Part shown: in pieces, positions 21,228 through 37,598 of the stretch | Numbering within the stretch: position 1 is the stretch's first letter | How the letters are laid out: each line of letters starts with the position of its first letter | Assembly: GCF_007858975.2 (NCBI RefSeq) | Contig: NZ_CP042220.2 | Span: forward strand, 3,410,001 to 3,474,000 | Length of the DNA: 64,000 nt | Direction: 5' to 3' | Source of the DNA: Dickeya poaceiphila | Lineage (GTDB): Bacteria; Pseudomonadota; Gammaproteobacteria; Enterobacterales; Enterobacteriaceae | Position numbers and translations under genes: made by a program | Notes under the pieces: model-generated | Told to the model about the DNA's origin: nothing | Seen by the model: the letters and a program-made list of their open reading frames with translations, nothing else | Database searches by the model: none

Positions 21228-21242
21228 CCACTCACCACTCAC

Positions 21243-21270
21243 AAAGCGGCTGGTCGAGCCAGCCGCTTTT
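21243..21270 (+). terminator. Terminator of the multicopper oxidase gene
   Basis: AAAGCGGCTGG, loop TCGA, CCAGCCGCTTTT. Confidence 0.8.
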
Positions 21271-21840
21271 AACTACTCACATCGCACCTCCTGTATTAGA
21301 CATAAACCTTCAAACCGTTTTAACCATGAATAAAATCATTGCGCTACTCCGGTGGTTATAAATAACGAGTCTCCCTCACATTTCGCATAATTTATATTCC
21401 GCAGGCCACTGATGTCCTCGCTGAAAAACACGCCAAATATCCATATCATTCCTATACACCTGGAATAAAAAGCGCGCTATGAATCAATACACCACTACTC
21501 ACCCTATTTCATCAGACGTAATAAATACCACTAGTTAAAAAACATGACGCCGATAACAGAATACAGCACGCCTATGCCTGACACCGAAAAAATGACTTAA
21601 AACAATATTTGCGTGGGGTCACAGATTCCCTGCTGATGGCCATTTTATCCATAAGATCAGCGAATACGCCCTGACCCTCTTCCCATGACAAAAACTACTG
21701 TTTTGTTATGAACGTTGAGTGGAGGAAAAATAATGCCGCCTGTCGTATCCCGATACAGGCGACAATGTTGAATACCCAATAATACCGCTGTCCCCAAGAA
21801 CGAAAACCGATAGCCAATGATTACCAGAGAGGACACTTTT
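21271..21840. other. Upstream region of ytfQ
   Basis: 570 bases without a supported gene; presumably the ytfQ promoter and 5' region. No perfect CRP site seen. Confidence 0.3.
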
Positions 21841-22797
21841 ATGTGGAAACGCGTCATTTTAGCTTCAGCTGTATGTGCGTCACTGTCATCAGTCGCGCTG
21901 GCAGCGCCATTGACAGTGGGATTTTCTCAAGTCGGATCGGAATCAGGCTGGCGCGCGGCTGAAACGACCGTGGCCAAAGAGCAGGCAAAAGCGCGCGGTA
22001 TTAACCTGAAAATTGCCGATGCCCAGCAAAAACAGGAGAACCAGATCAAAGCAGTACGCTCCTTTATCGCACAAGGGGTGGACGCTATTTTCATTGCTCC
22101 CGTGGTAGCAACCGGCTGGGAACCCGTGCTGAAAGAAGCCAAAGAAGCCAGGATACCAGTAATTCTGCTAGACCGCGGTATTGACGTCAAAGACGACTCG
22201 CTTTATCTCACTACCGTACGCGCCGACAATATCAAAGAAGGGGCATTAATTGGCGAATGGCTGATTAAAACCGAAAACGGCAAAACCTGTAATGTCGTTC
22301 AATTAGAAGGCACCGTCGGCGCCAGCGTCGCCATTGACCGTAAAAAAGGGTTTGAAGACGCTATCGCTAAAACACCGAATATTAAAATTATCCGTTCCCA
22401 GTCTGGCGACTTTACCCGTAGCGGCGGCAAACAGGTAATGGAAAGTTTTATCAAGTCAGAGAATAACGGCAAAAATATCTGCATGGTTTTCGCCCATAAC
22501 GACGATATGGTGATCGGCGCCATTCAGGCTATTAAGGAAGCGGGGTTAAAACCGGGAAAAGATATTCTGACCGGATCGATTGACGGTGTGCCGGATATTT
22601 TCCGTGCCATGCTGGCAAACGAGGCTAATGTCTCGGTTGAACTGACGCCAAATATGGCCGGGCCGGCATTTGATGCGCTGGAAAAATATAAAAAGGATGG
22701 CACATTGCCAGCCAAACTGATTCTGACGCCGTCCACCCTATTTAAACCAGACAGCGCACAGGCTGAGCTCGATAAGAAAAAGAACATGGGATATTGA
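21841..22797 (+). CDS. ytfQ: Galactofuranose ABC transporter, periplasmic binding protein YtfQ
   Basis: A 318-residue periplasmic binding protein (type I fold) with signal peptide MWKRVILASAVCASLSSVALA. It matches E. coli YtfQ almost throughout (AAPLTVGFSQVGSESGWRAA, NQIKAVRSFIAQGVDAIFIAP, GTVGASVAIDRKKGF, VFAHNDDMVIGAIQAIKEAG, DILTGSIDGVPDIF). E. coli YtfQ binds galactofuranose and galactopyranose. ATG 21841 follows GAGAGGACAC and is chosen over an in-frame start at 21817. It is the first gene of ytfQ-ytfR-ytfT-yjfF. Confidence 0.97.
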   Translation: MWKRVILASAVCASLSSVALAAPLTVGFSQVGSESGWRAAETTVAKEQAKARGINLKIADAQQKQENQIKAVRSFIAQGVDAIFIAPVVATGWEPVLKEAKEARIPVILLDRGIDVKDDSLYLTTVRADNIKEGALIGEWLIKTENGKTCNVVQLEGTVGASVAIDRKKGFEDAIAKTPNIKIIRSQSGDFTRSGGKQVMESFIKSENNGKNICMVFAHNDDMVIGAIQAIKEAGLKPGKDILTGSIDGVPDIFRAMLANEANVSVELTPNMAGPAFDALEKYKKDGTLPAKLILTPSTLFKPDSAQAELDKKKNMGY

Positions 22798-22863
22798 TAG
22801 CTCACCACCGCCATGGCCACTACCGCCATGGCGGACATCGCCTGTTTTGTGAGGGAGAATCGC

Positions 22864-24366
22864 ATGAACGGTTTCGACAACCAGGAAATCTTGCGTACGG
22901 AAGGGCTGAGCAAAATTTTTCCTGGGGTGAAAGCACTGGACAAGGTCGATTTCAGCCTGCGGCGCGGGGAAATCATGGCATTGCTGGGGGAAAATGGCGC
23001 GGGCAAATCTACGCTTATCAAAACGCTCACCGGCGTATACCAACGCGATGCGGGCACTATCTATCTCGAAGGTCAGCCCATTTCACCGAAAAATACCGCT
23101 CACGCCCAGCAACTGGGCATCGGCACGGTATATCAGGAAGTTAACCTGCTGCCCAATCTGTCAGTGGCGGATAACCTGTTTATTGGCCGCGAACCCAGAC
23201 GCTTCGGATTACTGCAACGCACCGAGATGGAAAAGCGCGCAGAAGCGCTGATGTCCTCCTATGGCTTCGAACTGGATGTCCGCGAACCGCTGAACCGCTT
23301 TTCCGTGGCGATGCAGCAAATCGTCGCCATCTGCCGCGCCATTGACCTGTCCGCCAGGGTGTTAATCCTCGACGAACCTACCGCCAGTCTTGACACTCAG
23401 GAAGTAGAGATGCTGTTCACCCTGATGCGTCAACTGCGCGATCAGGGCGTCAGTCTGATCTTCGTCACGCATTTTCTCGACCAGGTTTATCAGGTGACCG
23501 ACCGCATTACCGTGCTGCGCAACGGCGCATTCGTCGGCACCCACGACACGGCATCGCTGCCGCAGATAGAACTGGTAAAAATGATGCTGGGCCGCGAACT
23601 GGAGCAGAACGCGCTGCAACGCGCCGGACGCACGTTGCTGAGCGACAAGCCGGTAGTGGAATTCAAAGGCTACGGCAAAAAAGGGGTGATTGAACCATTC
23701 GAACTGGCGGTACGGCCTGGTGAAATCGTCGGTCTTGCCGGGTTGCTGGGTTCCGGGCGCACAGAAACCGCCGAAGTGATCTTCGGCATCAAACCAGCTG
23801 ATCGCGGTGAAGCGGTGATCAAAGGCAAATCGCAGACGTTGCGCTCGCCGCATCAGGCCTCCTGCCTTGGCATCGGTTTTTGCCCGGAAGATCGCAAAAC
23901 CGACGGCATTATCGCTGCCGCGTCGGTACGGGAGAATATCATTCTGGCGCTGCAAGCCCAGCGCGGCTGGCTACGCCCCATACCCCGCAAGGAGCAGCTA
24001 GCCATTGCCGAGCGATTCATTCGCCAGCTTGGCATCCGCACCCCAAGCGCCGATCAACCCATCGAATTGCTGTCCGGCGGTAACCAACAGAAAGTGCTGT
24101 TGTCCCGCTGGCTGCTGACCAAGCCGCAATTCCTGATCCTGGATGAACCGACCCGCGGCATCGACGTCGGCGCTCATGCCGAGATCATCCGGTTGATCGA
24201 AAGTCTGTGCGCCAATGGGCTGGCGCTGCTGGTGATCTCGTCCGAACTGGAAGAACTGGTGGGGTACGCCGACCGGGTACTGATTATGCGTGACCGGCAG
24301 CAGGTGGCGGAAATCCCGCTCGACCAGCTATCCGTTTCCGCCATCATGAATGCCATCGCGGCATAA
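22864..24366 (+). CDS. ytfR: Sugar ABC transporter ATP-binding protein YtfR
   Basis: A 500-residue tandem ABC ATPase of the CUT2 type that powers galactofuranose uptake. The first nucleotide-binding domain has Walker A GENGAGKST near 42 and Walker B ILILDEPTASLD; its signature region is degenerate (NRFSVAMQQ). The second has a degenerate Walker A (GLLGSGRTE), signature LSGGNQQK and Walker B FLILDEPTRGID. This pairing is normal for CUT2 proteins. ATG 22864 has GAGGGAGA upstream and gives the E. coli length; an upstream frame extension is not used. The gap to ytfQ is 66 bases. Confidence 0.96.
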   Translation: MNGFDNQEILRTEGLSKIFPGVKALDKVDFSLRRGEIMALLGENGAGKSTLIKTLTGVYQRDAGTIYLEGQPISPKNTAHAQQLGIGTVYQEVNLLPNLSVADNLFIGREPRRFGLLQRTEMEKRAEALMSSYGFELDVREPLNRFSVAMQQIVAICRAIDLSARVLILDEPTASLDTQEVEMLFTLMRQLRDQGVSLIFVTHFLDQVYQVTDRITVLRNGAFVGTHDTASLPQIELVKMMLGRELEQNALQRAGRTLLSDKPVVEFKGYGKKGVIEPFELAVRPGEIVGLAGLLGSGRTETAEVIFGIKPADRGEAVIKGKSQTLRSPHQASCLGIGFCPEDRKTDGIIAAASVRENIILALQAQRGWLRPIPRKEQLAIAERFIRQLGIRTPSADQPIELLSGGNQQKVLLSRWLLTKPQFLILDEPTRGIDVGAHAEIIRLIESLCANGLALLVISSELEELVGYADRVLIMRDRQQVAEIPLDQLSVSAIMNAIAA

Positions 24367-24379
24367 GGAGGGCATAGTG

Positions 24380-25417
24380 ATGCCTCGATCACTGAGCAAG
24401 CCGGGTTCTGATAAACACCCGTTTCGCTGGCCGTCATTACGGTTTTCACAGGGTATGCCGCAGATAGCCGCGCTGGCGCTGGTACTGCTGGTAGACAGCC
24501 TGGTCGCCAGCCACTTTTTCCAGATTGTCGTGCAGGATGGCCGCTTGTTCGGTAGCCCCATCGATATCCTTAACCGTGCCGCACCGGTGGCGTTGCTGGC
24601 GATCGGCATGACGCTGGTGATCGCCACCGGCGGCATTGACCTGTCGGTCGGGGCGATTATGGCGATTTCCGGGGCGGTTGCAGCATCGCTCACCGTACAA
24701 GGCTACAGCCTGTCGGTAGTGCTGCTGGCGGCGCTCGGCGTCGGCATGTTGGCCGGGTTGTGGAACGGTATTCTGGTTGCTGTCCTGAAGATTCAGCCAT
24801 TCGTCGCTACCTTGATCCTGATGGTAGCCGGGCGCGGTATCGCCCAGTTGATTACCGCCGGGCAGATAGTCACCTTCAACTCGCCGCCGCTGGCATGGCT
24901 TGGCAGCGGCGCGCTATTCTACTTCCCAACGCCGGTCATCATTGCGCTGGTCACACTGCTGTTGTTCTGGTTGCTGGTGCGGCGCACCGCGCTGGGGCTG
25001 TTCATCGAATCAGTGGGGATCAACATCCGGGCGGCGAAAAACGCCGGGGTCAGTACCCGCGCCATGGTGACCATGACGTATATACTGAGCGGGCTGTGTG
25101 CCGCCATCGCCGGGGTGATCGTCACCGCCGATATTCGGGGTGCTGATGCCAACAACGCCGGTCTGTGGCTGGAGATGGACGCCATTCTCGCCGTGGTGAT
25201 CGGTGGCGGTTCGCTGATGGGTGGTCGCTTCAACATGGTACTTTCCGTGTTAGGCGCGCTGATTATTCAGGGCATGAACACCGGTATTCTGCTGTCAGGT
25301 TTTCCACCGGAGCTCAATCAGGTGGTGAAAGCCGTCGTGGTATTGTGCGTACTGGTCGTCCAGTCGCCACGTTTTGTGACCTTGCTGAAAGGAGCTGGCC
25401 GCCATGATAAAGCGTAA
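24380..25417 (+). CDS. ytfT: Sugar ABC transporter permease YtfT
   Basis: A 345-residue inner membrane permease with about eight to ten hydrophobic segments, pairing with YjfF to form the channel of the galactofuranose importer. Typical CUT2 permease text: LNRAAPVALLAIGMTLVIATGGIDLSVG (quoted in part), AAKNAGVSTRAM, DAILAVVIGGGSLMGG. AAGGAGGG precedes; GTG at 24377 is an equally good start. It starts 13 bases after ytfR and its 3' end overlaps yjfF by 14 bases. Confidence 0.95.
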   Translation: MPRSLSKPGSDKHPFRWPSLRFSQGMPQIAALALVLLVDSLVASHFFQIVVQDGRLFGSPIDILNRAAPVALLAIGMTLVIATGGIDLSVGAIMAISGAVAASLTVQGYSLSVVLLAALGVGMLAGLWNGILVAVLKIQPFVATLILMVAGRGIAQLITAGQIVTFNSPPLAWLGSGALFYFPTPVIIALVTLLLFWLLVRRTALGLFIESVGINIRAAKNAGVSTRAMVTMTYILSGLCAAIAGVIVTADIRGADANNAGLWLEMDAILAVVIGGGSLMGGRFNMVLSVLGALIIQGMNTGILLSGFPPELNQVVKAVVVLCVLVVQSPRFVTLLKGAGRHDKA

Positions 25418-26396
25418 CTTGCCGCTGATGATCACACTGGCGGTATTCGTGCTTGGGTACCTGTACTGCCTGACGCAATTTCCAGGTTTCGCCTCCACGC
25501 GTGTCATCTGCAACATTCTTACCGATAATGCCTTTCTGGGTATTGTCGCCGTCGGCATGACCTTTGTGATCCTCTCCGGCGGTATCGACCTGTCCGTCGG
25601 GTCGGTGATCGCGTTTACCGGCGTGTTCCTCGCCAAAGCCATCGGCATGTGGGGACTGTCGCCGCTGGTGGCGTTCCCGTTGATCCTGCTGATGGGGTGC
25701 GCCTTTGGCGCATTCATGGGCCTGCTCATCGATGCGTTAAAAATCCCGGCGTTTATTATCACGCTGGCGGGAATGTTCTTTCTGCGCGGCGCCAGCTATC
25801 TGGTATCGAAAGAATCCCTGCCGATTAACCACCCGATCTACGAGACGCTCTCCAGTCTGGCATGGACTATCCCCGGCGGCGGTCGGCTCAGCGCCATGGG
25901 GCTGTTGATGCTGATGGTGGTCGCCGTCGGCATCGTGCTGGCGCGCCATACCCGCTTCGGCAATCAGGTTTACGCCATCGGCGGCAACAGCACCTCCGCC
26001 AACCTGATGGGTATTTCCACCCGCAGCACCACCATTCGCATTTACATGCTGTCCACCGGGCTGGCGACCCTCGCCGGGATCGTATTCTCCATTTATACCT
26101 CGGCAGGTTATGCGCTGGCGGGTGTTGGGGTCGAGCTGGACGCCATCGCCTCGGTGGTGATCGGCGGCACGCTGCTGAGCGGCGGCGTCGGCACCGTACT
26201 CGGCACGCTGTTCGGCGTGGCGATTCAGGGGTTGATTCAGACCTACATCAACTTTGACGGCACGCTCAGTTCCTGGTGGACCAAGATTGCCATCGGCATA
26301 TTGCTGTTTGTATTCATTGCCCTGCAACGCGGCCTGACCGCACTGTGGGAAAACCGCCAGAACGCGCCGGTAAAACGTGTCGTCCCGCACGGATAA
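25404..26396 (+). CDS. yjfF: Sugar ABC transporter permease YjfF
   Basis: A 330-residue CUT2 permease, the second membrane subunit of the YtfQRT-YjfF importer. Shared motifs are GMTFVILSGGIDLSVGSV, YAIGGNSTSANLMGIST and DAIASVVIGGTLLSGG. ATG 25404 has AAAGGAGCTGG upstream, inside the end of ytfT, so translation is coupled. Length matches E. coli (331). Confidence 0.95.
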   Translation: MIKRNLPLMITLAVFVLGYLYCLTQFPGFASTRVICNILTDNAFLGIVAVGMTFVILSGGIDLSVGSVIAFTGVFLAKAIGMWGLSPLVAFPLILLMGCAFGAFMGLLIDALKIPAFIITLAGMFFLRGASYLVSKESLPINHPIYETLSSLAWTIPGGGRLSAMGLLMLMVVAVGIVLARHTRFGNQVYAIGGNSTSANLMGISTRSTTIRIYMLSTGLATLAGIVFSIYTSAGYALAGVGVELDAIASVVIGGTLLSGGVGTVLGTLFGVAIQGLIQTYINFDGTLSSWWTKIAIGILLFVFIALQRGLTALWENRQNAPVKRVVPHG

Positions 26397-26785
26397 CGGC
26401 AGAACCGATCACCCTCCCCCATACGCAGGTGTGAAAAACGTAGGTGTGAGATGCCCCACAAGGCCTCACCCTACGTTTGTACTCGTCTGACGCACCTACG
26501 CGCCTTTAGCCCAACGTCGCACACCTGCGGCAAACTTGCTATTGGCCGGAATACGCCTATGTTTGAATACAGGAACAGCGCATATTGTCATCGGGCAACG
26601 ACCCGCATAGCGCTTTTCGACCTTGCCACCCTTCGCTTTCCTTTCTTCACACCACCAGGTTGTACGTTGTTCGAACATAACGATATGAGGTTACCGTCAG
26701 CACGGTACTTAGCCTGTGCAACGTTTTTTTCGGGTGGCGATACTTCACTGTTCGACATTGACACGTTCTATCGAGAGGAAATGTT
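26397..26785. other. Intergenic region before the decarboxylase gene
   Basis: 389 bases with no supported gene; likely carries the promoter of the downstream gene. No operator recognised. Confidence 0.3.
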
Positions 26786-28207
26786 ATGACGCATACCAAA
26801 AGCCGCACAACAAGTACACCTGAAGCAGAACAGTCGCCACATTACGAAAGCAGCGGACACAGCCTGCTTACCCTGGATAACGCCGGGCCGATCCAGATGG
26901 GATTTTGGGTACCCAACCGGGTATGGGCTACCGCAAAATTCCTGATACCACTGCGCGAGCATATCGCCAACAAGAAACATACCAATACCCTGACGCCAAT
27001 GCAGCCGGTGCTCCAGAACTTTAAAAACTGGGTGACCAACCACAGCGTCTACCGCATGTGGCTCAATAGCATGATCGAACAATCCAACGCCTATGTTGCT
27101 TCTCTGCCCGAATCCACCCGCAAGCAGATCAGCGACGATGGCGATGCGACCTGGATAGACAGCTACGACAGCTTCTTCGAGATCCTCAACGAAATCATCA
27201 CCACCTCACCGTCGTTCAACACCACCGTACAAGTCGGGACTCCGATGAATGCGTTTCTGGCGGTGGCAATGGGGACAGAAGCAGGCGTGGCACTGTTCCA
27301 CGACGCTACGTTCAATCAGCAGTTCCGCCAGATGTTGGACGCCTGGAACACCTTCCTGAAAAGCAGCGCCTCACTCGACAAACTCGATATCGAGCAACCG
27401 GAAAAACCCGGCTCCTGGATCTCCAAAGCCGCATATCAGGCCGGCGTCTGGCACCAGATGCAGCACGATCCCAACCGACCGGGCTACGGTTTCGCCAGCT
27501 GGAACGATTTCTTTATCCGTCAGTTCGTACCCGGCGCGCGCCCATTCCAGGGCGATCCAAACACCCAGATAGATATCGGCTGCGAAACCACACCGTGGCG
27601 ATATGCTGACCAGTTGCAGTTGGAGAGCCGATTCTGGGTCAAAGACATCCCCTATTCACTGCTCGATCTGTTCGGTGGACAGCGGCAATGGGCCAAACTG
27701 TTCGAAGGAGGGCAGCTTTATCAAGGGTTCCTCTCCGCCACCCACTATCATCGCTGGAACTCGCCGCTAGACGGTTTTCTGGTGCGTTCCTGGGTTGAAC
27801 CGGGTACTTATTTTGCTCAGCGTCCTGGGCAGGGCGAAAATCAGGGCACCTGGGAAGGCACTGAGTCACAACCGTACCTCGGCCATGTGGCCGCACGCGC
27901 GGTGTTTATCTTCCGGCACAAGACCTGTGGTTATGTGGCGCTAATCTGCATCGGCATGGTGGAAGTTTCCAGCTGTGTGATCGAACCCAGCACCTTTATC
28001 GTTGAAGAAAGCGCCGAGCCGGTTAGCATCACGCGCGGCGTCGAAATCGGTCACTTCGAGTTCGGCGGCTCGACCCACATGATGATCTTCCAGAAAGATC
28101 GAGTAGCGTTGGAAAAATGGGCCATCGACGCCGTCAGTCACCGCAACGATAAAAACCCCATCCCGCTTGGCAGCGTGATCGCCACTGCGCGGGATAGCAA
28201 AGGCTAA
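26786..28207 (+). CDS. Phosphatidylserine-decarboxylase-like protein (predicted pyruvoyl amino acid decarboxylase)
   Basis: A 473-residue protein with an N-terminal helical PSD-associated domain (about 30-230) and a C-terminal PSD catalytic domain. The family residues are visible: THYHRWNSP with His320/His322, and the self-cleavage motif FGGST with Ser429, which would become the pyruvoyl group; cleavage would give a small alpha chain of about 45 residues. There is no signal peptide or membrane anchor, unlike the true Psd. This architecture resembles the fungal tryptophan decarboxylase PsiD, a PSD relative acting on a free amino acid. The substrate cannot be told. The eutE-like and eutR-like genes follow; a strong terminator separates it from eutE. 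GAGAGGAA precedes ATG 26786. Confidence 0.82.
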   Translation: MTHTKSRTTSTPEAEQSPHYESSGHSLLTLDNAGPIQMGFWVPNRVWATAKFLIPLREHIANKKHTNTLTPMQPVLQNFKNWVTNHSVYRMWLNSMIEQSNAYVASLPESTRKQISDDGDATWIDSYDSFFEILNEIITTSPSFNTTVQVGTPMNAFLAVAMGTEAGVALFHDATFNQQFRQMLDAWNTFLKSSASLDKLDIEQPEKPGSWISKAAYQAGVWHQMQHDPNRPGYGFASWNDFFIRQFVPGARPFQGDPNTQIDIGCETTPWRYADQLQLESRFWVKDIPYSLLDLFGGQRQWAKLFEGGQLYQGFLSATHYHRWNSPLDGFLVRSWVEPGTYFAQRPGQGENQGTWEGTESQPYLGHVAARAVFIFRHKTCGYVALICIGMVEVSSCVIEPSTFIVEESAEPVSITRGVEIGHFEFGGSTHMMIFQKDRVALEKWAIDAVSHRNDKNPIPLGSVIATARDSKG

Positions 28208-28220
28208 TCAGCACCCACAT

Positions 28221-28258
28221 CGGGTTTCGGCTGCGGCCTGGGCCACAGCCGAAACCCG
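28221..28258 (+). terminator. Terminator of the PSD-like gene
   Basis: CGGGTTTCGGCTG and CAGCCGAAACCCG form a perfect 13-pair stem with a 12-base loop. Confidence 0.8.
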
Positions 28259-28671
28259 CATCATCGTCCGATGATTTCTTTTCTGTTAATCGATGGTTCT
28301 TTTTTCGTGATCTCTTTCAACCTTTACGCCGACTTGCCGAATTTTGTTATTCGCTTTGACCTGCCGTTGCCACAATGACCACAAGTCAACACAGGAAACA
28401 CCGGGCCGCCCCATCAGAACAGGCGCGGCATTAAAATGGAAGGGTTCTCTCAGGGATGAGAATCCTCCGGGCGCGGCACAATCCTTCTGGCTTCCCTGGT
28501 TGGAATGGCGCCCTCTGCGCGTACCAAGCCGAACGCAGCCGGACTTGAATAATACGCCGAATCCGCATCCGTACTTTTTCCGTACTTTTGGCCACGGCAC
28601 TGTTGATCAACGCCATGTAAACCGATGATCAGCGTGGTTTAAACAAGTTACATAACAAGAGGATAGACCCT
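28259..28671. other. Upstream region of the eutE-like gene
   Basis: 413 bases without a supported gene. Presumably contains the promoter and the EutR-type control site; none can be placed with confidence. Confidence 0.3.
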
Positions 28672-30051
28672 ATGGAACACTCCGTGATCGAACCGACCGT
28701 ACCGATGCCCACCCCGGTGATGTTTGATGCACCGAGCGGTATTTTCGACTCGCTTGACGACGCGGTTCAGGCTGCAACGCACGCTCAGCAGCAATTGAGC
28801 AGCGTCGAACTACGTCAACAGGTGATTAAGGCGATTCGGGTTGCTGGCGAGCGCTATGCTCAGGTACTGGCGGAAATGGCAGTGGCCGAAACCGGCATGG
28901 GACGCGTGGTCGATAAGTACATCAAGAACGTGTCGCAGGCGCGCCATACGCCGGGAATCGAGTGCCTGTCGGCGGAAGTGCTGACCGGCGACAACGGGTT
29001 GACGCTGATCGAAAACGCGCCATGGGGGGTCGTGGCGTCGGTCACACCCTCTACCAACCCGGCAGCGACGGTAATCAACAATGCCATCAGCATGATCGCA
29101 GCGGGCAACAGCGTGGTGTTCGCCCCTCATCCGTCGGCGAAACATGTATCGCTGCGTACCATCAGCCTGCTCAACAAAGCGATTGTCGCCACCGGCGGCC
29201 CGGAGAACCTGCTGGTCAGCGTCTTCGAACCCAACATTGAAACCGCGCAACGTCTGTTTTGCTACCCCGGCATCGGCCTGCTGGTGGTCACCGGCGGCGA
29301 AGCGGTGGTGGAAGCGGCACGCAAACATACCGACAAACGGCTGATTGCCGCCGGAGCGGGTAACCCACCGGTAGTGGTGGATGAAACCGCGGACATTCCG
29401 AAAGCGGCCCGCGCCATCGTTAAAGGCGCTTCATTCGACAACAACATCATCTGTGCCGACGAGAAGGTATTGATCGTAGTGGACAGCGTGGCTGATGCTT
29501 TGCTGGCAGAAATGCAGCACAACCATGCCGTGCTGCTCACACCGGAACAAACCGAACAATTGCTGCCGGTGCTGTTGAGCGATATCGACCCGCAGGGTAA
29601 AGGTCGCGTCAACCGCGATTATGTTGGCCGCGATGCCGCTAAACTTGCTGCGGCTATTGGTCTGGAAGTCAGTGAACATACCCGCCTGCTATTGGCTGAA
29701 ACCGACGCCAGCCACCCGTTCGCCATCACTGAACTGATGATGCCGGTACTGCCGGTAGTGCGGGTGAAAAACGTGGATGACGCCATCGCGCTGGCGCTTA
29801 CGCTGGAAAACGGCTGTCGCCACACTGCCGCGATGCACTCCACCAATATCAGGAATCTGAACCGTATGGCGAACGCCATCAACACCAGTATTTTCGTCAA
29901 AAACGGCCCTTGTATCGCCGGGCTGGGGCTGGGCGGCGAAGGCTGGACCTCGATGACCATCTCGACGCCGACCGGTGAAGGCGTGACCTCGGCCCGCACC
30001 TTTGTTCGCCTGCGGCGCTGTGTGCTGGTGGATATGTTCCGTATCGCCTGA
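28672..30051 (+). CDS. eutE: Acetaldehyde dehydrogenase (CoA-acylating), EutE-like
   Basis: A 459-residue CoA-acylating aldehyde dehydrogenase that converts acetaldehyde, CoA and NAD+ to acetyl-CoA. Most of the sequence matches EutE: TGDNGLTLIENAPWGVVASV, GGEAVVEAARKH, KRLIAAGAGNPPVVVDETAD and the active-site DNNIICADEK with Cys261. The N-terminus is divergent (MEHSVIEPTVPMPTPVMFD) and lacks the amphipathic helix that targets PduP/EutE into microcompartments. No shell, ammonia-lyase or alcohol dehydrogenase genes are near. AAGAGGATAG precedes the ATG. A terminator follows at 30069. Confidence 0.92.
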   Translation: MEHSVIEPTVPMPTPVMFDAPSGIFDSLDDAVQAATHAQQQLSSVELRQQVIKAIRVAGERYAQVLAEMAVAETGMGRVVDKYIKNVSQARHTPGIECLSAEVLTGDNGLTLIENAPWGVVASVTPSTNPAATVINNAISMIAAGNSVVFAPHPSAKHVSLRTISLLNKAIVATGGPENLLVSVFEPNIETAQRLFCYPGIGLLVVTGGEAVVEAARKHTDKRLIAAGAGNPPVVVDETADIPKAARAIVKGASFDNNIICADEKVLIVVDSVADALLAEMQHNHAVLLTPEQTEQLLPVLLSDIDPQGKGRVNRDYVGRDAAKLAAAIGLEVSEHTRLLLAETDASHPFAITELMMPVLPVVRVKNVDDAIALALTLENGCRHTAAMHSTNIRNLNRMANAINTSIFVKNGPCIAGLGLGGEGWTSMTISTPTGEGVTSARTFVRLRRCVLVDMFRIA

Positions 30052-30068
30052 ATGGGGTCGCTGCGTTA

Positions 30069-30095
30069 TTGCCGCTGGTTAACCTCCAGCGGCAA
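30069..30095 (+). terminator. Terminator of eutE
   Basis: TTGCCGCTGG, seven-base loop, CCAGCGGCAA; perfect ten-pair stem, weak T tract. Confidence 0.65.
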
Positions 30096-30317
30096 CATCA
30101 CCACGTAACCGGACATAAAGGAGATAAACAGAGGACGAGAAAGCAACGGACGGGTCATATCAGAATAAGGCTAAATGTGCTTTAGCGCCTGTTCCTCCCC
30201 AATCGAATGCCGTATAACGAGCTAATGTATGGGTCTGCCTGAGTGTCGTCCACCGACATGGCGCAGCCATCATGCAGAGTGGACCCCGCCCGACATTGTC
30301 ACGGAGGTGAGCTGACG

Positions 30318-31361
30318 ATGAAACACAATCCGGTCAACCTGCATCATCTGGATGCAGAGCACCGTCTCCCGGCAACAACGCCAGTGTCGCCAGACGATAA
30401 CATACACCAATGTCAGACACAGGATGTCTACGCCCAATCCCGCACCATTACCGCCTGGCAGCAGATTTATGACCAGGTTTCGCCGGGGCATTTCACAGGG
30501 GAATTACGAGAAATTCTGCTCGATGGCATCCAGCTTTGCCACGAATACACCAGTCTGGCGTTGCGCCAGTCCTGCATGATATGGCCGGATTCCTTCTGGT
30601 TCGGTATTCCCGCCCGCCATGCAGGAACCGGCTTCATCGGTTCTTATCCCATCAGCAACAGTGCGATTGCCGTCAGCCCCGGAGGTAAAGAATTCGAGCT
30701 GAACACGCCGGATGACTACGCCATTCTGGGCGTGGCTATCTCCCGCGACGAACTGCTGCAATACACCGATGTGCTGGAAGAACCGGAGCCATTGACCCGC
30801 CTGCTGGCGCAAAGCTCCACCTTACTGGTGGAGCCGCACAGGCGCGAGATCTTCTGGTCGTTTGTACGCGAAGCGCTGTGGTATGGCTGCAACGAGCCGC
30901 AACGTCTGCAACATAGCAATGCGGTCAAAGTACTGAAACACAATCTGCTGACTACGGTGATTTCGTTTCTGGAAAGCGCCCAACCAGCCGATGTCAACAC
31001 TGCACATACCGGCAGACGCATCGGCTACCGCAGCCTGATTGGCTGCGCCAGAGAATATGTACTCAGCCAGCAGTCGGAACCGGTCACGGTGCTTGACCTG
31101 TGCCGCCGCCTGCATGTCAGCCGCCGCACGCTGCAAAACGCATTCTGCGATGTGATGGGCTGCGGTCCTAACGCCTGGCTGAAGATGATCCGCCTCAACG
31201 CGGTACGTCGTGAGCTGGTCAGCCCCTACTCCCGTCATCACACCGTGCAGGATGCCGCGATGCAATGGGGCTTCTGGCACCTGAGCCAGTTCGCCTGCGA
31301 CTACCAGCGACTGTTTGGTGAAAAGCCCTCGGTGACGCTCAAGGCTCGATTAGCAGGATAA
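30318..31361 (+). CDS. eutR: AraC-family regulator, EutR-like
   Basis: A 347-residue AraC/XylS activator. In E. coli and Salmonella EutR (350 residues) senses ethanolamine plus adenosylcobalamin and turns on the eut operon. Strong matches are ITAWQQIYDQVSPGHFTGE, LALRQSCMIWPDSFWFGIPA, the first helix-turn-helix SEPVTVLDLCRRLHVSRRTLQ and NAWLKMIRLNAVRRELVSP, and MQWGFWHLSQFACDYQRLFGEKPS at the C-terminus (read in parts). ATG 30318 with GGAGGTGAG upstream is preferred; the frame is open to 30243. It likely controls eutE and perhaps the PSD-like gene upstream. Confidence 0.92.
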   Translation: MKHNPVNLHHLDAEHRLPATTPVSPDDNIHQCQTQDVYAQSRTITAWQQIYDQVSPGHFTGELREILLDGIQLCHEYTSLALRQSCMIWPDSFWFGIPARHAGTGFIGSYPISNSAIAVSPGGKEFELNTPDDYAILGVAISRDELLQYTDVLEEPEPLTRLLAQSSTLLVEPHRREIFWSFVREALWYGCNEPQRLQHSNAVKVLKHNLLTTVISFLESAQPADVNTAHTGRRIGYRSLIGCAREYVLSQQSEPVTVLDLCRRLHVSRRTLQNAFCDVMGCGPNAWLKMIRLNAVRRELVSPYSRHHTVQDAAMQWGFWHLSQFACDYQRLFGEKPSVTLKARLAG

Positions 31362-31428
31362 GTGAAAACAACTGTAAGCTGAAATAAGGAAGGTAGGTAT
31401 TGCCGGATTTTCATCCGGCAAGCCTGGA

Positions 31429-32406
31429 TCACGCATTCAGCGCATCAAACGCGCGACGGATATCGTCTTGCGGCAGTCGGATACCGATAAACACCATCAC
31501 GCTCTCACGCGGTTCATCCGCGTGCCATGCCCGGTCCCAGTCGGCGCTGTAAAGCCGTTGCACCCCCTGAAACAGCAGGCGGCGGTCATCGCCGTTAATC
31601 GCCAGAACGCCTTTATAGCGCAATAGATTATCGGCGCAATTCACCAGCAACTGCTCCATCACCGCCGATACCGCCGCCATATCTACCGGACGCGTCAGTT
31701 GCACCACCAGCGAGGTGATGGCGTTATCCTGCTCGATTAATGGCCGGAAACGCGGCTGAGAAATCTGTAGCTGATCATTGAGCATGAAACCATCGACGCC
31801 GAAGATCTGGCGGTGGTCGATCTGACCGTTCACCACCCGATACAGGCTGGCACGGGCGTTGATACGCGCCAGTCTCTCCTCCAGTGCCTGCGTCTCACCT
31901 GCCAGATCAGTCTTGGTCAGCAATATCCGGTCAGCGTAGCCTACCTGCGCCTGTGCTACGGTGTGCCGGTTCAGTTGGTCATCGGCGTGCACCGCATCTA
32001 CCAGCGCAATCACGCCATCCAACAGGAAGCGTTGGCTCAGGCGTTCGTCAGAAAAAAAGGTTTGAATCACCGGCCCCGGATCGGCCATACCGGTACATTC
32101 GATCACCAGCCGGTCAAACGCCAGCTCGCCGCTGTCGATGCCGTCCAGCAGTTCATGCAGCGCATCGGACAGCTCATTCGCGCTGCTACAGCAGATACAC
32201 CCATTGCTGAGCGTGGTGATACGGGTCGCCCGGTCGCCCAGCAGGGCATCATCAATCGCCACCGCACCGAATTCATTTTCAATCACAGCGATCTTTTCAC
32301 CGTGGTCGGCATACAACAGGTGCCGCAGTAGCGTGGTTTTACCCGCGCCGAGAAAGCCGGTAAGAATAGTTGCGGGTAATACCGCTGCCGGTAATGAATG
32401 GGTCAT
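31429..32406 (-). CDS. yjiA: GTP-binding metallochaperone YjiA (COG0523/CobW family)
   Basis: A 325-residue G3E-family P-loop GTPase. Walker A is GFLGAGKTTLL near 17-27, the family metal-binding CICC motif is in LSNGCICCSS, base specificity is NKxD-like LTKTDL, and a C-terminal CobW_C domain follows. E. coli YjiA binds transition metals such as zinc and cobalt and is thought to be a metal carrier; its target is unknown. Same orientation and order btsT-yjiX-yjiA as in E. coli, so co-transcription is likely. Confidence 0.93.
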   Translation of the reverse strand: MTHSLPAAVLPATILTGFLGAGKTTLLRHLLYADHGEKIAVIENEFGAVAIDDALLGDRATRITTLSNGCICCSSANELSDALHELLDGIDSGELAFDRLVIECTGMADPGPVIQTFFSDERLSQRFLLDGVIALVDAVHADDQLNRHTVAQAQVGYADRILLTKTDLAGETQALEERLARINARASLYRVVNGQIDHRQIFGVDGFMLNDQLQISQPRFRPLIEQDNAITSLVVQLTRPVDMAAVSAVMEQLLVNCADNLLRYKGVLAINGDDRRLLFQGVQRLYSADWDRAWHADEPRESVMVFIGIRLPQDDIRRAFDALNA

Positions 32407-32436
32407 AATCGAAAAAACTCCTTCGCCCCTGGCGCG

Positions 32437-32640
32437 TCAACAGCACCGAAAACCGCCTTTGCCGCTGCCGCCATAGCGCGCCTGCTGGCGTTCACGGAAA
32501 AACTCCTCATAGCTCATGACATCCTGGTCCGGGTGGTTAGTCTGCATATGCTGCACGTAGTTGTCATAATCCGGGATGCCCACCAGCATTCTGGCGGCCT
32601 GCCCCAGATATTTTCCCGCTTTACCAAGATTTCCGAACAT
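32437..32640 (-). CDS. yjiX: YbdD/YjiX family small protein
   Basis: A 67-residue protein typical of the YbdD/YjiX family that always follows a CstA-type transporter gene. Conserved text: [34 protein letters not shown] and the cysteine-ending GGFRCC tail. In E. coli the paralogue pairs are btsT-yjiX and cstA-ybdD, and the small protein is thought to be required for pyruvate transport by its partner. It lies 101 bases after btsT and 30 before yjiA. Confidence 0.95.
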
Positions 32641-32741
32641 ATCGCCCTCTCTTCGTATGAGCGCCTGTAGTATGAGCCGACAAATATAAGCGCCGACAGG
32701 CCCGCACAGGTGCCTGTCGGCGGTATGTTCCTCACCGTCTG

Positions 32742-34889
32742 TTAATGATGGGAAGAAATCTTCACGCCACCTTCCGGCACCGGTACATAAGGCGTTTCCC
32801 GGTCGGAACGCTCCGACTGGTTACGTTCCCGCAACGCTGTACGAATACCATAGAAGATTATGCTATACACCACCACCAGGAACACCACGCTCAGCACCGC
32901 ATTGGTGTAGTTGTTAACAACGATGTGATGCATGTTGGCAATCTGCTGCGCGCTCAGATCCGTCCCTTCGGCAATGCGCTGTTTGTAAACGCGCGCCAGG
33001 TACAGGAACCCTTCCATCTGGGGATTATTGCTAAACAACTTCAGGCCCAGCGCCCAAGTGGTGCAAATCAGCAGCCAGACTGCCGGCAGCACCGTTACCC
33101 AGATATAACGCGTACGTTTCATCTTGATCAGCACCACGGTGCCCAGCACTAGCGCTACGGCGGCCAGCATCTGGTTGGAGATGCCGAACAGCGGCCACAA
33201 GCTCTTGACGCCACCCAGCGGATCGACCACGCCCTGATACAACAGGTAGCCCCACAGGCCGACGCAACCGGCAGTACCAACAATACCGGCGATCAGCGAA
33301 TCGGTCTTTTTCAGGAATGGTACGAAGTTACCCAGCAGGTCCTGCAACATAAAGCGGCCAGAGCGGGTACCGGCGTCCAGCGCGGTCAGAATAAACAGCG
33401 CTTCAAACAAGATTCCGAAGTGATACCAGAAACCCATGTTGGCGCTCGGAATGATCTGGTGGAACACATGGGCGATACCCACCGCCAGCGTTGGCGCGCC
33501 ACCGGCACGGTTGAGCACCGACGGTTCGCCGATGTCTTTCGCCGTTTGCAGGATCTGCTCCGGCGAAATCACAAACCCCCAGGCACTGACAGTGGCGGCG
33601 GCCTGTGCGGTGACATCATGCAATTGCGCCATAATCGCCGGCGCATTCGCGCCGCCTAGCTCGTGCAGGTTAGGCATGGTGATACCCAGCCCAACCGGCG
33701 GGGTGTTCATCGCAAAGTACAAACCCGGCTCAATAATCGACGCCGCAACCAGCGCCATAATGGCAACGAAAGATTCCATCAGCATCGCGCCATAACCGAT
33801 AAAGCGGGCGTCGGTTTCGTTAGCCAGTAGTTTCGGCGTCGTGCCGGATGCAATCAGCGCATGGAAGCCGGACACCGCGCCGCAGGCGATAGTAATAAAC
33901 AGGAATGGGAACAGCGCGCCTTTCCACACCGGACCGGTGCCGTCGATAAACTGCGTGATCGACGGCATTTTCAGCTCAGGATTGATGATCACGATGCCAA
34001 TCGCCAGACCGACGATCACCCCAATTTTCAGGAACGTCGCCAGATAGTCGCGCGGCGCCAGAATCAACCACACCGGCAGCAGCGCAGAAATAAACGCATA
34101 ACCGATCAGCGCAAAAGTGATGGTCGTATCCTTGAAGGTCAGTGCCGGCCCCCAGTACGGGTCGTGAGCGATGACGCCGCCAAACCAGATGGCCAGCAGC
34201 AGCAGCACGATACCAATCACCGAGACTTCCCCCACCCGACCAGGACGCAGGAAGCGCATATAAATGCCCATAAACAGTGCGATAGGCACGGTGGAGCAAA
34301 CGGTAAACACACCCCATGGGCTTTCCGCCAGCGCTTTCACCACGATCAACGCCAGTACCGCCAGAATAATGATCATAATCAGGAAGCAGCCGAACAGCGC
34401 GATAGTGCCGGGCACCGGCCCCATTTCCTCTTTGATCATTTCCCCAAGCGATACGCCATTGCGGCGGGTTGACATGAACAGCACCATGAAGTCCTGCACG
34501 GCACCGGCCAACACCACCCCGGCCAGCAGCCACAGCGTGCCGGGCAGGTAGCCCATCTGAGCCGCCAGCACCGGTCCCACCAGCGGGCCAGCGCCGGCAA
34601 TCGCCGCAAAGTGGTGACCGAACAACACATTGCGGTTGGTCGGCACATAGTTAAGCCCGTCATTGTTAACCACTGCCGGCGTGGCGCGGTTAGCGTCAAG
34701 TTGCATCACCTTACGGGCGATATACAGGCTGTAATAACGGTAAGCCACCAGGTAGACCGCCACCGAGGCGACCACTATCCACATGGCGCTGACGTGCTCA
34801 CCGCGACGCAGCGCGACCACCCCCAGGCAACATGCCCCAATGAACCCCAGCAACGCCCAGGGAAGATGCCTGAGAAGTTTATCTTTCAT
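32742..34889 (-). CDS. btsT: Pyruvate/proton symporter BtsT (CstA family)
   Basis: A 715-residue inner membrane protein with about 16-18 hydrophobic segments, the size of E. coli BtsT (716). BtsT takes up pyruvate with protons under nutrient limitation. The CstA signatures are present: [41 protein letters not shown] and [16 protein letters not shown] (in parts). The next genes in the direction of transcription are yjiX and yjiA; directly upstream are btsR and btsS in the same orientation. Three regularly spaced candidate BtsR sites lie 94-141 bases upstream of the start. Confidence 0.96.
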
Positions 34890-34982
34890 AGCGTTTACCC
34901 TTCTTATAATGTCGTTATTAATGATGTAGTCACGTTTCGTGACTGTAAGCGGGCCACAAGTGGGGTCATAGCTGAATTTGGG

Positions 34983-35030
34983 TAAGTGGTCGGATAAGCC
35001 GATGACCGGTCACATATCAGGATAAGCGGT
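34983..35030 (-). promoter_or_regulatory. Candidate BtsR binding sites upstream of btsT
   Basis: On the minus strand ACCGCTTA (35030-35023), ACCGGTCA (35010-35003) and ACCACTTA (34990-34983) recur at exactly 20-base intervals. The reported E. coli BtsR (YehT) motif is a direct repeat of ACC[G/A]CT[C/T]A with a 13-base spacer, so the element matches well in sequence and closely in spacing. It is located 94-141 bases before the btsT start. Confidence 0.7.
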
Positions 35031-35187
35031 GAAGAATTTTTACTTAATTTGAAGCAATTCACCCTGCAGTGAGCAACAGACGAGATGTCATGCCAACGCG
35101 TATTCACGCATCGGCCAAACAAGAAGCTAACAAGGCAACAGCAGCAAACACAGAAGACAGGCAACGCAGACAATTGCCGGGAGCGGT

Positions 35188-35913
35188 TCAGCCTTTGAGG
35201 CCAAGCCATTGCTTGAGGGTTTTCAGATAGCGACGGCTAACCGGTAACGCCAGGCCGCTTTTTAGCAGAATCTCCGCCTGGCCGCTCTCTTCCAGCCGGA
35301 TTTCGCGCAGATAGTCCATATTGACCAGATATTGCCGATGACAGCGCACCAGCGGAGTACGGCTTTCCAGCGTTTTCAGCGTCAATTCGGTAAAGCACTC
35401 CTCCCCTTGCGGCCCCGTCACGTAGACGCCGCTCTGACGTGAGCTGGCAAACTGCACCTCGCTGCTTTTCATCAGGTAGATCCGGCTATGTCCGGTGCAC
35501 GGGATGTAGTCAAGACCAACCTGATGATCAGACAATTTGTCGATACTCTGTGCTGGCCGCTCACGATGCAGATTGCGCAAGGTTTTTGCCAGCCGCTGCG
35601 GATCGATAGGTTTAAGCAGGTAATCAAACGCCTGTTCCTCAAACGCCTTGATGGCATATTCGTCGTAGGCGGTAATGAACACAATGTAGGGCATGTTGTC
35701 CGGATCGATCATGCCAATCATCTCCAGCCCACTGATACGCGGCATCTGAATATCCAGAAACACCACATCAGGATGCAAGCGGTGAATCGCGCTGATCGCC
35801 TCTATCGCGTTCGCGCACTCGCCCACCAGCTCAAGACCATCATCCTGTTCCAGCAGGCAGCGCAGGTTGTCCCGCGCCAGCGGTTCATCATCAACAATCA
35901 GTACGTTCAGCAT
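35188..35913 (-). CDS. btsR: LytTR response regulator BtsR
   Basis: A 241-residue response regulator: receiver domain ([16 protein letters not shown], phosphoacceptor Asp54 in VVFLDIQMP, Thr and Lys in TAYDEYA and YLLKPID) and a C-terminal LytTR DNA-binding domain ([22 protein letters not shown], in parts). In E. coli BtsR is activated by BtsS when pyruvate is sensed and turns on btsT. The start overlaps the btsS stop by seven bases. E. coli has btsSR away from btsT; here they are adjacent. Confidence 0.95.
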
Positions 35914-37598
35914 GGCTGGCTTTCCTCACAAGGCAGCGTCACATGGATATGGGTATAACGCTCAGGCTCACACTCCACGCTCAGGCCATAATCATTGCCA
36001 TAGCGGCTGCGAATGCGCTTATCCACCAGATTCATCCCCAGCCCGGTGCAGTTGGTTCGCGGCTGGTACAAACCAGCATTATCCTCAATGCTCAGCAACA
36101 GCCTGTCACCCTGCCGCCTGGCGCTGATGGTGATCACCCCCGTCCCCAGCAGGTGTGCCGTACCGTGTTTTATCGCGTTTTCCACCAGCGGTTGCAGTGA
36201 GAACGCCGGTAACCGCATCGACATTAACGCCTGCGGCAGGTCAAAACGAATTTGCAGCCGTTCCTGAAAGCGGGCTTTCTCAATCTGCAAATAAGCGTTC
36301 ACATGCTCTATCTCATCGGCCAGCGTAACCACTTCCTCAGAACGTTTAAGATTTTTACGGAAAAACGTCGAGAGCGACTGCACCAGTTTACCGGCCTGTT
36401 CACTATCGCGGCGAATCACCGCCAACAGCGTGTTGAGCGCGTTAAACAGGAAATGTGGATTAACCTGCGCGTGAAGCAGTTTGATTTCCGATTGCGTCAG
36501 CAACTGCTTGCTGCGCTCATACTGGCCGGCCAGAATCTGCGCGGCCAGCAGGCGGGCGATGCCTTCACCAAAGGTACGGTTGATTGAACTGAACAGCCGA
36601 TTTTTGGCCTCATACAGTTTGATGGTGCCGATCACCTGCTGATTCTCGCCGCACAGCGGGATCACCAGCGTGGACCCCAAACGGCAACCGGACTGCAACG
36701 AGCACTGGTAAGGTGTTTCATTGCCGTCGGCGTACACCACCTCGTTGTGCTCAATGGCTCGCCGGGTATGGCCCGATGCGATAGGTGTTCCCGGAAGATG
36801 GTGATCGTCGCCGATACCGATAAAGGCCAGCAGTTTTTCACGATCAGTGATCGCCACCGCGCCGATATCCATCTCCTGATAGATAACCTGCGCCACCTTC
36901 ATGCTGTTTTCTTCGTTAAACCCTTGATGCAGGATACCTTCGGTACAGGCGGCGATTTTTAATGCTCTGGCAGAAAACGCCGAGGTGTACTTTTCGAACA
37001 TGGCGCGCCGGTCCAGCAGGATTCGCATGAACATCGCCGCACCAATGCTGTTGGTAACAATCATCGGAGCGGCAATATCTTTAACCAGCCTCAGCGCATC
37101 ATCAAATGGTCGCGCCAGCAACAGAATAATCGCCATTTGCAGCAATTCGGCGATAAACGTCACCCCAGCTACGGTAAACGGGTTAAATAATCGGTCGATT
37201 CGGCCACGACGCATCAACCAACGGTGCGCCATGCCGCCCAACAGTCCCTCAACGATGGTTGATACCATGCAACTGAACGCGGTCATGCCGCCGAGCGAAT
37301 AACGGTGCAGCCCACCGGTCATCCCCACCAACACGCCAACGCCCGGCCCACCGAGCAGACCGCCCAGCACCGCCCCCATCGCGCGCGTATTGGCGATGGA
37401 GTCCTGTACATGCAGCCCGAAATAGGTCCCCATGATGCAGAACATGGAAAACATGGCATAACACAACAGTTTATGTGGCAGCCGGACCGTGACCTGCATC
37501 AACGGAATGAATAGCGGCGTTTTACTAAGCAGATAGGCGATCACCAGATACACGCACATCTGCTGGAGCAACAGTAAAACCAGTTTGAACTCATACAT
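35907..37598 (-). CDS. btsS: LytS-type sensor kinase BtsS
   Basis: A 563-residue histidine kinase and high-affinity pyruvate sensor. The N-terminus is a 5TM-LYT membrane domain ([41 protein letters not shown] in parts), then a GAF domain (about 210-350), then a HisKA_7TM-type kinase with [11 protein letters not shown] (phospho-acceptor His) and ATP-binding VENAIKHG. Very similar to E. coli YehU/BtsS in length and text. ATG 37598 is the conserved start. It opens the btsSR operon, with the dlt terminator 125 bases upstream. Confidence 0.96.

What the first reader, a model, noticed from the sequence alone, without database searches (positions are those of the whole stretch)
26786..31361. PSD-like decarboxylase beside EutE and EutR: a reduced ethanolamine-type module
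Seen: a soluble phosphatidylserine-decarboxylase-like protein (GGST self-cleavage site at Ser429, THYHRW), then a nearly full EutE without the microcompartment targeting helix, then an EutR-like AraC regulator, all on the plus strand. Known: EutR senses ethanolamine with adenosylcobalamin; EutE makes acetyl-CoA from acetaldehyde; PSD relatives such as PsiD decarboxylate free amino acids. Inference: the decarboxylase may turn serine (or another amino acid) into the amine sensed by EutR, with EutE removing the aldehyde formed later. The ammonia-lyase EutBC and shell genes are absent here, so the pathway is either split or new.
Basis: partly seen in the sequence, partly recalled or inferred. Interest (0 to 1): 0.75.

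Follow-up and report, generated by a model that had tools for sequence, protein, structure and literature searches.

The report
Pruned ethanolamine operon, plus unrelated decarboxylase
A plant-rotting bacterium seems to have cut the usual ethanolamine gene set down to one enzyme and its switch, and probably makes that enzyme's substrate by a vitamin-B12-free route encoded elsewhere in its genome; the decarboxylase next door looks like a separate gene.

Summary
(1) eutE-eutR is a pruned eut operon. A block upstream of eutE (28299-28380) matches the eutS promoter of full eut operons (CRP-like site, TGCCGAATTTTGTTATT box, -10-like element). The exact box occurs once in each of 8 searched genus genomes with eutR, always before eutE, and not in the ninth, which lacks eutR. 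Both genes are under purifying selection. EutB is absent from all 9. (2) The likely acetaldehyde source lies elsewhere in the genome: an ethanolamine permease beside an APH-type kinase, and a protein closest to ethanolamine-phosphate phospho-lyase. All 14 kinase-bearing genomes among 77 have the lyase; one has regulator, kinase, permease and lyase together. This predicts B12-independent ethanolamine breakdown ending in cytosolic EutE. Activities are inferred, and I found no such box at permease/kinase or lyase genes. (3) The decarboxylase is PsiD-type, found across phyla; eutE/eutR lie near it in 2 of 50 named loci, both Dickeya, and a C69-type peptidase in three Pectobacteriaceae. A review reports that Erwinia chrysanthemi eutR is plant-induced and needed for spread; this suggests a testable basis.

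The parts
26786..28207 (+). PsiD-type pyruvoyl decarboxylase gene (PSDC + PS_Dcarbxylase), read as separate from the eut unit; substrate unknown
28221..28258 (+). Strong hairpin just after the decarboxylase stop (13-pair stem; -36.5 kcal/mol for the 68-nt stretch folded), a possible transcript end; by eye not kept as such in relatives
   Evidence: alignment
28299..28380 (+). Promoter block homologous to the eutS promoter (P1) of full eut operons
28306..28321 (+). CRP-like CGTGATCTCTTTCAAC inside the P1-type promoter (the CRP reading is recalled, not tested)
28335..28351 (+). Presumed EutR box TGCCGAATTTTGTTATT; one exact copy of the pattern in each of 8 eutR-bearing genus genomes, none in G001
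28371..28376 (+). -10-like CACAAT of the P1-type promoter
28438..28460 (+). Leader element GGAAGGGTTCTCTCAGGGATGAG, nearly invariant in 8 genomes; role unknown
28672..30051 (+). eutE: CoA-acylating acetaldehyde dehydrogenase without the conserved N-terminus of microcompartment EutE
30318..31361 (+). eutR: AraC-family ethanolamine-type regulator (ATG start)

Best explanation
eutE-eutR is the remnant, still in use, of a canonical eut operon: the eut promoter P1, eutE and eutR were kept, and the genes normally between them (shell, cofactor, ammonia-lyase and other genes) are gone. EutR activates P1, which drives eutE and then eutR. EutE, free in the cytosol, turns acetaldehyde into acetyl-CoA. 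The acetaldehyde most likely comes from ethanolamine by a B12-independent route encoded elsewhere in the same genome: ethanolamine permease, an APH-family kinase giving phosphoethanolamine, then a PLP phospho-lyase giving acetaldehyde, ammonia and phosphate. The decarboxylase upstream is an independent gene that happens to lie next to the unit. Shown here: gene content, promoter homology, purifying selection, absence of EutB, co-occurrence of kinase and lyase. Inferred: enzyme substrates, EutR binding and ligand, and flux from lyase to EutE.
For: P1 homology: the best 16-nt stretch of the G031 eutS promoter has 47 of 48 matches in three Dickeya upstream regions (G000, G004, G008 of 8), control maximum 35 in 30 single-base shuffles; 18 of 18 identical to G031 by blastn, E 4.7e-4; all 8 Dickeya and 3 canonical sites listed. 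Exact pattern once in each of 8 eutR-bearing genus genomes, always upstream of eutE, 0 in G001. Median pairwise dN/dS (own NG86 script): eutE 0.038, eutR 0.071, 28 pairs each. No EutB in 9 of 9 genus genomes searched. Permease TIGR00908 619.6 bits, cut-off 381.75, divergent from the kinase. Lyase: best PDB hits are ethanolamine-phosphate phospho-lyase 6tor (361.7 bits) and phospholyase 5g4i (325.1), next 179.2. Kinase in 14 of 77 genomes (own included), all 14 with the lyase (Fisher p 1.8e-14; genus collapsed to one, 6 of 6, p 5.8e-8). In G024 AraC-kinase and permease-lyase are contiguous. EutR and kinase go together (8 of 11 EutR genomes, p 1.8e-5), but those 8 are one genus.
Against: No EutR-type box was found at the permease/kinase or lyase loci of the genus, so the two halves share no visible regulation. 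G001, G024 and G028 have kinase and lyase without a EutE of this type or EutR, so EutE is not obligatory for the route. Dickeya EutR is more diverged (54-58% identity) from three canonical EutRs than these are from each other (65-76%), so its ligand may differ. The kinase's best PDB hit is called only 'aminoglycoside phosphotransferase' (6ef6). None of 14 kinase genomes has EutB, but p is 0.06, and 0.33 with the genus collapsed. Whether the genome supplies adenosylcobalamin was not tested. No significant relics of the lost eut genes were found (best E 0.047), so pruning is read from promoter homology and gene order only. In Dickeya the lyase is unlinked to permease and kinase.
Confidence: 0.6

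Rival explanations
1. The reader's module: the PSD-like enzyme decarboxylates serine (or another amino acid) to the amine sensed by EutR, and EutE removes the aldehyde formed later.
For: Adjacency and strand in 6 of 9 genus genomes, plus a seventh (G008) with another gene in between; statistical association in 77 genomes, p 1.0e-6, from one genus; PsiD-type fold compatible with free amino acid substrates.
Against: Unlinked in G006 and G022; eutE/eutR near it in 2 of 50 named loci, both Dickeya; P1-type promoter before eutE; a C69-type peptidase gene follows it in G008, G022 and L147; neighbour clustering shows no constant partner.
Confidence: 0.05
2. EutE-EutR deals with acetaldehyde of other origin, such as plant ethanol and acetaldehyde in oxygen-poor rotting tissue, threonine or deoxyribose breakdown; ethanolamine is not involved as carbon source.
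For: No EutR-type box at the ethanolamine permease, kinase or lyase loci; EutE shares no locus with them; G001, G024 and G028 have kinase and lyase without this EutE.
Against: A permease scoring as ethanolamine equivalog in this genome, with homologs at 92% or more in the 8 other genus genomes, and a phospho-lyase in all 9; EutR of other enterics answers ethanolamine (PMC5821096, passages).
Confidence: 0.2
3. EutR is kept mainly as a host-signal regulator of other genes (virulence or fitness); eutE is carried along.
For: Review: Erwinia chrysanthemi eutR is upregulated during infection and its loss stops spread in the plant; EutR of E. coli and Salmonella controls non-eut genes (PMC5821096, passages).
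Against: The only exact site of the pattern in each of 8 genomes lies before eutE; eutE has the lower dN/dS of the two. A diverged box at other targets could have been missed.
Confidence: 0.15
4. Decaying leftover of a lost eut operon with no present function.
For: The other eut genes are not found in the window and EutB not in the genome; G001 lacks the pair altogether.
Against: dN/dS 0.038 and 0.071, open frames in 8 of 8 genomes, box exact in 8 of 8.
Confidence: 0.03

Closest known systems
Long eut operon (eutSPQTDMNEJGHABCLKR; gene names recalled) of enteric bacteria, as in G031, G010, G042
   Same: Homologous P1 promoter with the same box, EutE (78-79%), EutR (54-58%), eutR last in line
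   Different: No EutBC, shell or accessory genes found in the window; EutE lacks the conserved N-terminus; about 295 nt between -10-like element and eutE, against a box 63-73 nt before eutS
Short eut operons without microcompartment (permease, eutBC, sometimes eutR; PMC5821096 and PMC9397018, passages)
   Same: Presumably cytosolic, Eat-type permease in the genome, EutR
   Different: Short operons keep eutBC; here EutB is absent from the genome
Ethanolamine kinase / phosphoethanolamine phospho-lyase route (Jones, Faulkner and Turner 1973 for Erwinia, recalled; human ETNPPL 6tor, bacterial 5g4i)
   Same: Phospho-lyase by best PDB match, kinase and permease present
   Different: Here apparently joined to EutE-EutR of a pruned eut operon; substrates not assayed
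PsiD-type pyruvoyl decarboxylases (PsiD 8x4q, Aspergillus arginine decarboxylase 9jer)
   Different: 26-31% identity, substrate unknown, bacterial family of its own

Membership tests
EutR (NF007522) | Score over curated cut-off | tested here: met
   599.7 bits, cut-off 319
EutR (NF007522) | Cognate box at a eut promoter | tested here: met
   Same box as before eutS in 3 of 3 full operons looked at, and before eutE in 8 of 8; that it is the EutR site is inferred, binding not tested
EutR (NF007522) | Responds to ethanolamine plus adenosylcobalamin | not testable with these tools
   Needs an assay
EutE | Sequence family and active-site cysteine region | tested here: met
   PRK15398 694.2 bits, cut-off 403; FDNNIICADEK identical in 4 of 4 aligned EutE; which Cys is catalytic is recalled
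EutE | N-terminal microcompartment signal | tested here: not met
   Conservation starts at residue ~20-23
Canonical eut operon | EutB present | tested here: not met
   0 of 1 own genome, 0 of 9 genus genomes searched; of 14 control genomes only E. coli rings
Canonical eut operon | Shell and accessory genes beside it | tested here: not met
   tblastn of 17 eut proteins from G031 against the window, L208 and L211: only eutE and eutR significant; rest of the genome not searched for shell genes
Phosphatidylserine decarboxylase | Score over an NCBIfam PSD equivalog cut-off | tested here: not met
   4 models match, best 71.8 bits with cut-off 371; another PSD-like gene, presumably psd, at C1:532193
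PsiD-type decarboxylase fold | Fold and motifs | tested here: met
PsiD-type decarboxylase fold | Amino acid substrate | not testable with these tools
   Needs an assay
Phosphoethanolamine phospho-lyase | Closest to proven phospho-lyases among class III aminotransferase-fold proteins | tested here: met
   361.7 and 325.1 bits against 179.2 for the next; the 6 other PF00202 proteins score as other enzymes
Phosphoethanolamine phospho-lyase | Activity on phosphoethanolamine | not testable with these tools
   Needs an assay
Ethanolamine permease (TIGR00908) | Score over curated cut-off | tested here: met
   619.6 bits, cut-off 381.75

The most novel reading that the evidence does not exclude
In Dickeya the B12-linked ethanolamine sensor-promoter pair EutR/P1 has outlived the B12 enzyme it evolved with: one kept enzyme, EutE, now serves as the last step of a B12-free kinase/phospho-lyase pathway, and the single exact EutR-type box in the genome would mean that the reported plant-spread phenotype of eutR runs through eutE alone. 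EutR may then have lost its need for adenosylcobalamin.
Probability: 0.35. Interest if true: 0.75.

Novelty: new variant of a known kind. Interest (0 to 1): 0.58.

Why it matters
The eut regulator is textbook for coupling ethanolamine and B12. Here it is retained, with its promoter, in a genus where no EutB was found. That makes it possible to ask whether EutR still needs B12 when nothing known downstream does, and it offers a concrete metabolic reading (acetaldehyde to acetyl-CoA, fed by phosphoethanolamine) for the reported requirement of eutR for spread of Erwinia chrysanthemi in plants. It also assigns candidate genes to a kinase/phospho-lyase ethanolamine route that the passages I saw of two reviews do not list.

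Tried and rejected
A functional link between decarboxylase and eutE/eutR was tested by gene order, by 50 named loci and by neighbour clustering in 48 of the 50 loci (L182 and L193 left out). The largest neighbour cluster was ABC-transporter ATPases in 10 of 48 loci at differing positions; others stayed within Pseudomonas or Kordia. A C69-type peptidase follows in G008, G022 and L147; only the G008 protein was scanned (PF03577 167.4 bits, cut-off 23; NCBIfam C69 150.2 bits, below its cut-off 250), the other two were recognised by near-identical N-termini and length. Several of the 50 loci are short contigs, so absence of a neighbour is weak there. The ORF picker chose the opposite strand over PSD-like in L114r; the gene is there.

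A riboswitch or other Rfam family: none with E up to 1 in 20000-36000. Promoter and terminator pattern scans of 26300-31500 gave no more than shuffles (1 against 2.9, 6 against 5.7). Conserved leader hairpin: folds better than shuffles in G000 only (z -2.8); not in G002 or G004, and the G007 stretch I folded did not hold the whole element; not claimed.

Shared EutR control of the whole pathway: a weight-matrix scan of permease/kinase and lyase loci found no convincing site (best 16.4, at the 5' end of an unrelated gene in L211, against 34.3-39.0 for the sites the matrix was built from). Sites with 1-2 mismatches are near background (in all 5-11 per genome against 3-8 for the reversed pattern) and were not used. 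Avoidance of EutB by kinase genomes is not significant.

Rows dropped before counts: for the lyase, 17 of 77 genomes pass E 1e-50; I counted the 15 with at least 75% identity and left out G020 (33%) and G073 (41%). In G034 kinase and lyase are both in pieces but counted as present. The G022 kinase has one in-frame stop and is counted as present. Of six APH-family proteins only two were scanned with NCBIfam.

Not tested: B12 supply, shell genes and EutC in the whole genome, and gene order around eutR in Pectobacterium, Brenneria and others (protein names only). No paper on this unit in Dickeya, or on kinase/lyase genes there, showed up in searches; these cover open-licence PMC papers only. Papers seen as passages: PMC5821096, PMC3486870, PMC6529630, PMC9397018, PMC8154272. 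Any other paper: search listing only. Yang 2004 was seen only as cited in PMC5821096; Jones, Faulkner and Turner 1973 is recalled.
Full report
Observation. The three genes are present, open and on one strand. Family models place them as a PSDC + PS_Dcarbxylase protein, an EutE-type aldehyde dehydrogenase and EutR. The self-cleavage motif GGST (Ser429) and THYHRW are as reported. The eutR start is better put at ATG 30318. Named relatives show the genus to be Dickeya: two unnamed genus genomes (G002, G003) have contigs of the same length as records of Dickeya oryzae ZYY5 (327125) and Dickeya undicola 2B12 (61209).

Are they one module? I think not. Among the 9 genus genomes searched (G000-G008), PSD-like is in 7 and eutE and eutR in 8. 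PSD-like directly precedes eutE in 6; in G008 a further gene lies between; on the stretches fetched G006 has eutE-eutR without PSD-like or ytf genes and G001 has neither; G022 (another genus, probably Musicola from the 90% match P0001) has ytf-PSD-like without eutE/eutR. The gene between in G008 is a C69-family peptidase, and a gene of near-identical start and length follows PSD-like by ~100 bp in G022 and in Prodigiosinella (L147). In 50 loci of named genomes eutE and eutR lie near PSD-like only in the two Dickeya ones; clustering of neighbours in 48 of those loci gave no constant partner. On the other side, PSD-like and EutR are associated over 77 genomes (p 1.0e-6), but the 7 shared genomes are one genus.

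The eutE-eutR unit. EutE is 78-79% identical to EutE of three full operons from residue ~23 on, with no conserved targeting N-terminus; EutR is 54-58% identical. None of the 9 genus genomes searched has EutB, while 14 of the 77 genomes have it. Median pairwise dN/dS is 0.038 (eutE) and 0.071 (eutR) over 28 pairs each. Upstream of eutE a block is kept in all 8 genomes, G006 included. It is homologous to the eutS promoter of the full operons of G031, G010 and G042: a CRP-like site at 28306-28321, the box at 28335-28351 and a -10-like CACAAT at 28371-28376. The best 16-nt stretch scores 47 of 48 over three Dickeya regions against a control maximum of 35 in 30 shuffles. [quoted passage not shown] that this box is the EutR site is my inference. 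A pattern search of the 9 genomes gives one exact site in each of the 8 with eutR, always before eutE, and none in G001. No significant relics of 15 other eut proteins were found nearby (best E 0.047). So the unit looks like P1-eutE-eutR of a eut operon whose other genes were lost.

Where does acetaldehyde come from? Of seven class III aminotransferase-fold proteins in the genome, six score as ArgD-, GabT-, BioA-, putrescine-, diaminobutyrate- and HemL-type. The seventh (C1:2509058-2510395) matches human ethanolamine-phosphate phospho-lyase (361.7 bits) and a bacterial phospholyase (325.1) far above the next (179.2). Of six APH-family proteins one, without NCBIfam match at E 1e-20, lies divergently beside an ethanolamine permease (TIGR00908, 619.6 bits, cut-off 381.75) and before an AraC-type regulator gene. 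Kinase, lyase and permease are in all 9 genus genomes searched. Kinase is in 14 of 77 genomes, all with lyase (15 of 77), p 1.8e-14, or 6 of 6 with the genus collapsed, p 5.8e-8. In G024 regulator-kinase and permease-lyase are contiguous (L261), and in G012 second, more distant copies of kinase (41%) and lyase (46%) abut (L262). This is the kinase/phospho-lyase route that I recall for Erwinia from the 1970s literature; the review passages I saw do not list it, and 'phosphoethanolamine' occurs in neither main text.

Against a tight link: I found no such box at permease/kinase or lyase loci, which have other regulator genes nearby; G001, G024 and G028 have the route without this EutE or EutR; the kinase's substrate is unproven. 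So I hold the pruned-operon reading firmly (about 0.9) and the feeding of EutE by the phospho-lyase moderately (about 0.6).

Significance. PMC5821096 (passage) reports that eutR of Erwinia chrysanthemi (now Dickeya, recalled) is upregulated during infection and that its loss prevents spread in the plant. EutR entries are listed for Dickeya zeae, D. dianthicola and D. undicola; that the studied strain has this same arrangement is inferred from the genus. The present anatomy suggests looking for that effect in eutE first.

Noticed in passing
window 26786-28207; L145-L194: The PsiD-type decarboxylase is 62-79% identical in records of many bacterial phyla without constant neighbours, which suggests gene transfer and an unknown widespread reaction.
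   Followed up: partly
window 28438-28460 and 28565-28578: Two short elements in the eutE leader (GGAAGGGTTCTCTCARGGATGAG and GCATCCGTACTTTT) are nearly invariant in 8 genomes although the rest of the leader varies; the GGA motif recalls CsrA/RsmA sites (recalled, untested).
   Followed up: partly
L114:10243-11931 (-), L147, L115: A C69-type peptidase gene follows the decarboxylase by ~100 bp in G008, G022 and Prodigiosinella and is not between decarboxylase and eutE in the 6 other Dickeya genomes that have both.
   Followed up: partly
L114 and L115, upstream of the decarboxylase: G008 and G022 have an extra, repeat-like stretch at the same spot in the decarboxylase promoter region.
   Followed up: no
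L201 / G000:C1:2509058-2510395; L208:6052-8825: Likely phosphoethanolamine phospho-lyase, and an ethanolamine permease-kinase pair, at two separate places of the genome.
   Followed up: yes
window 31429-34889 (-): yjiA and cstA homologs follow eutR on the other strand and were seen in all 9 genus genomes; the interval before yjiA is variable in content.
   Followed up: partly
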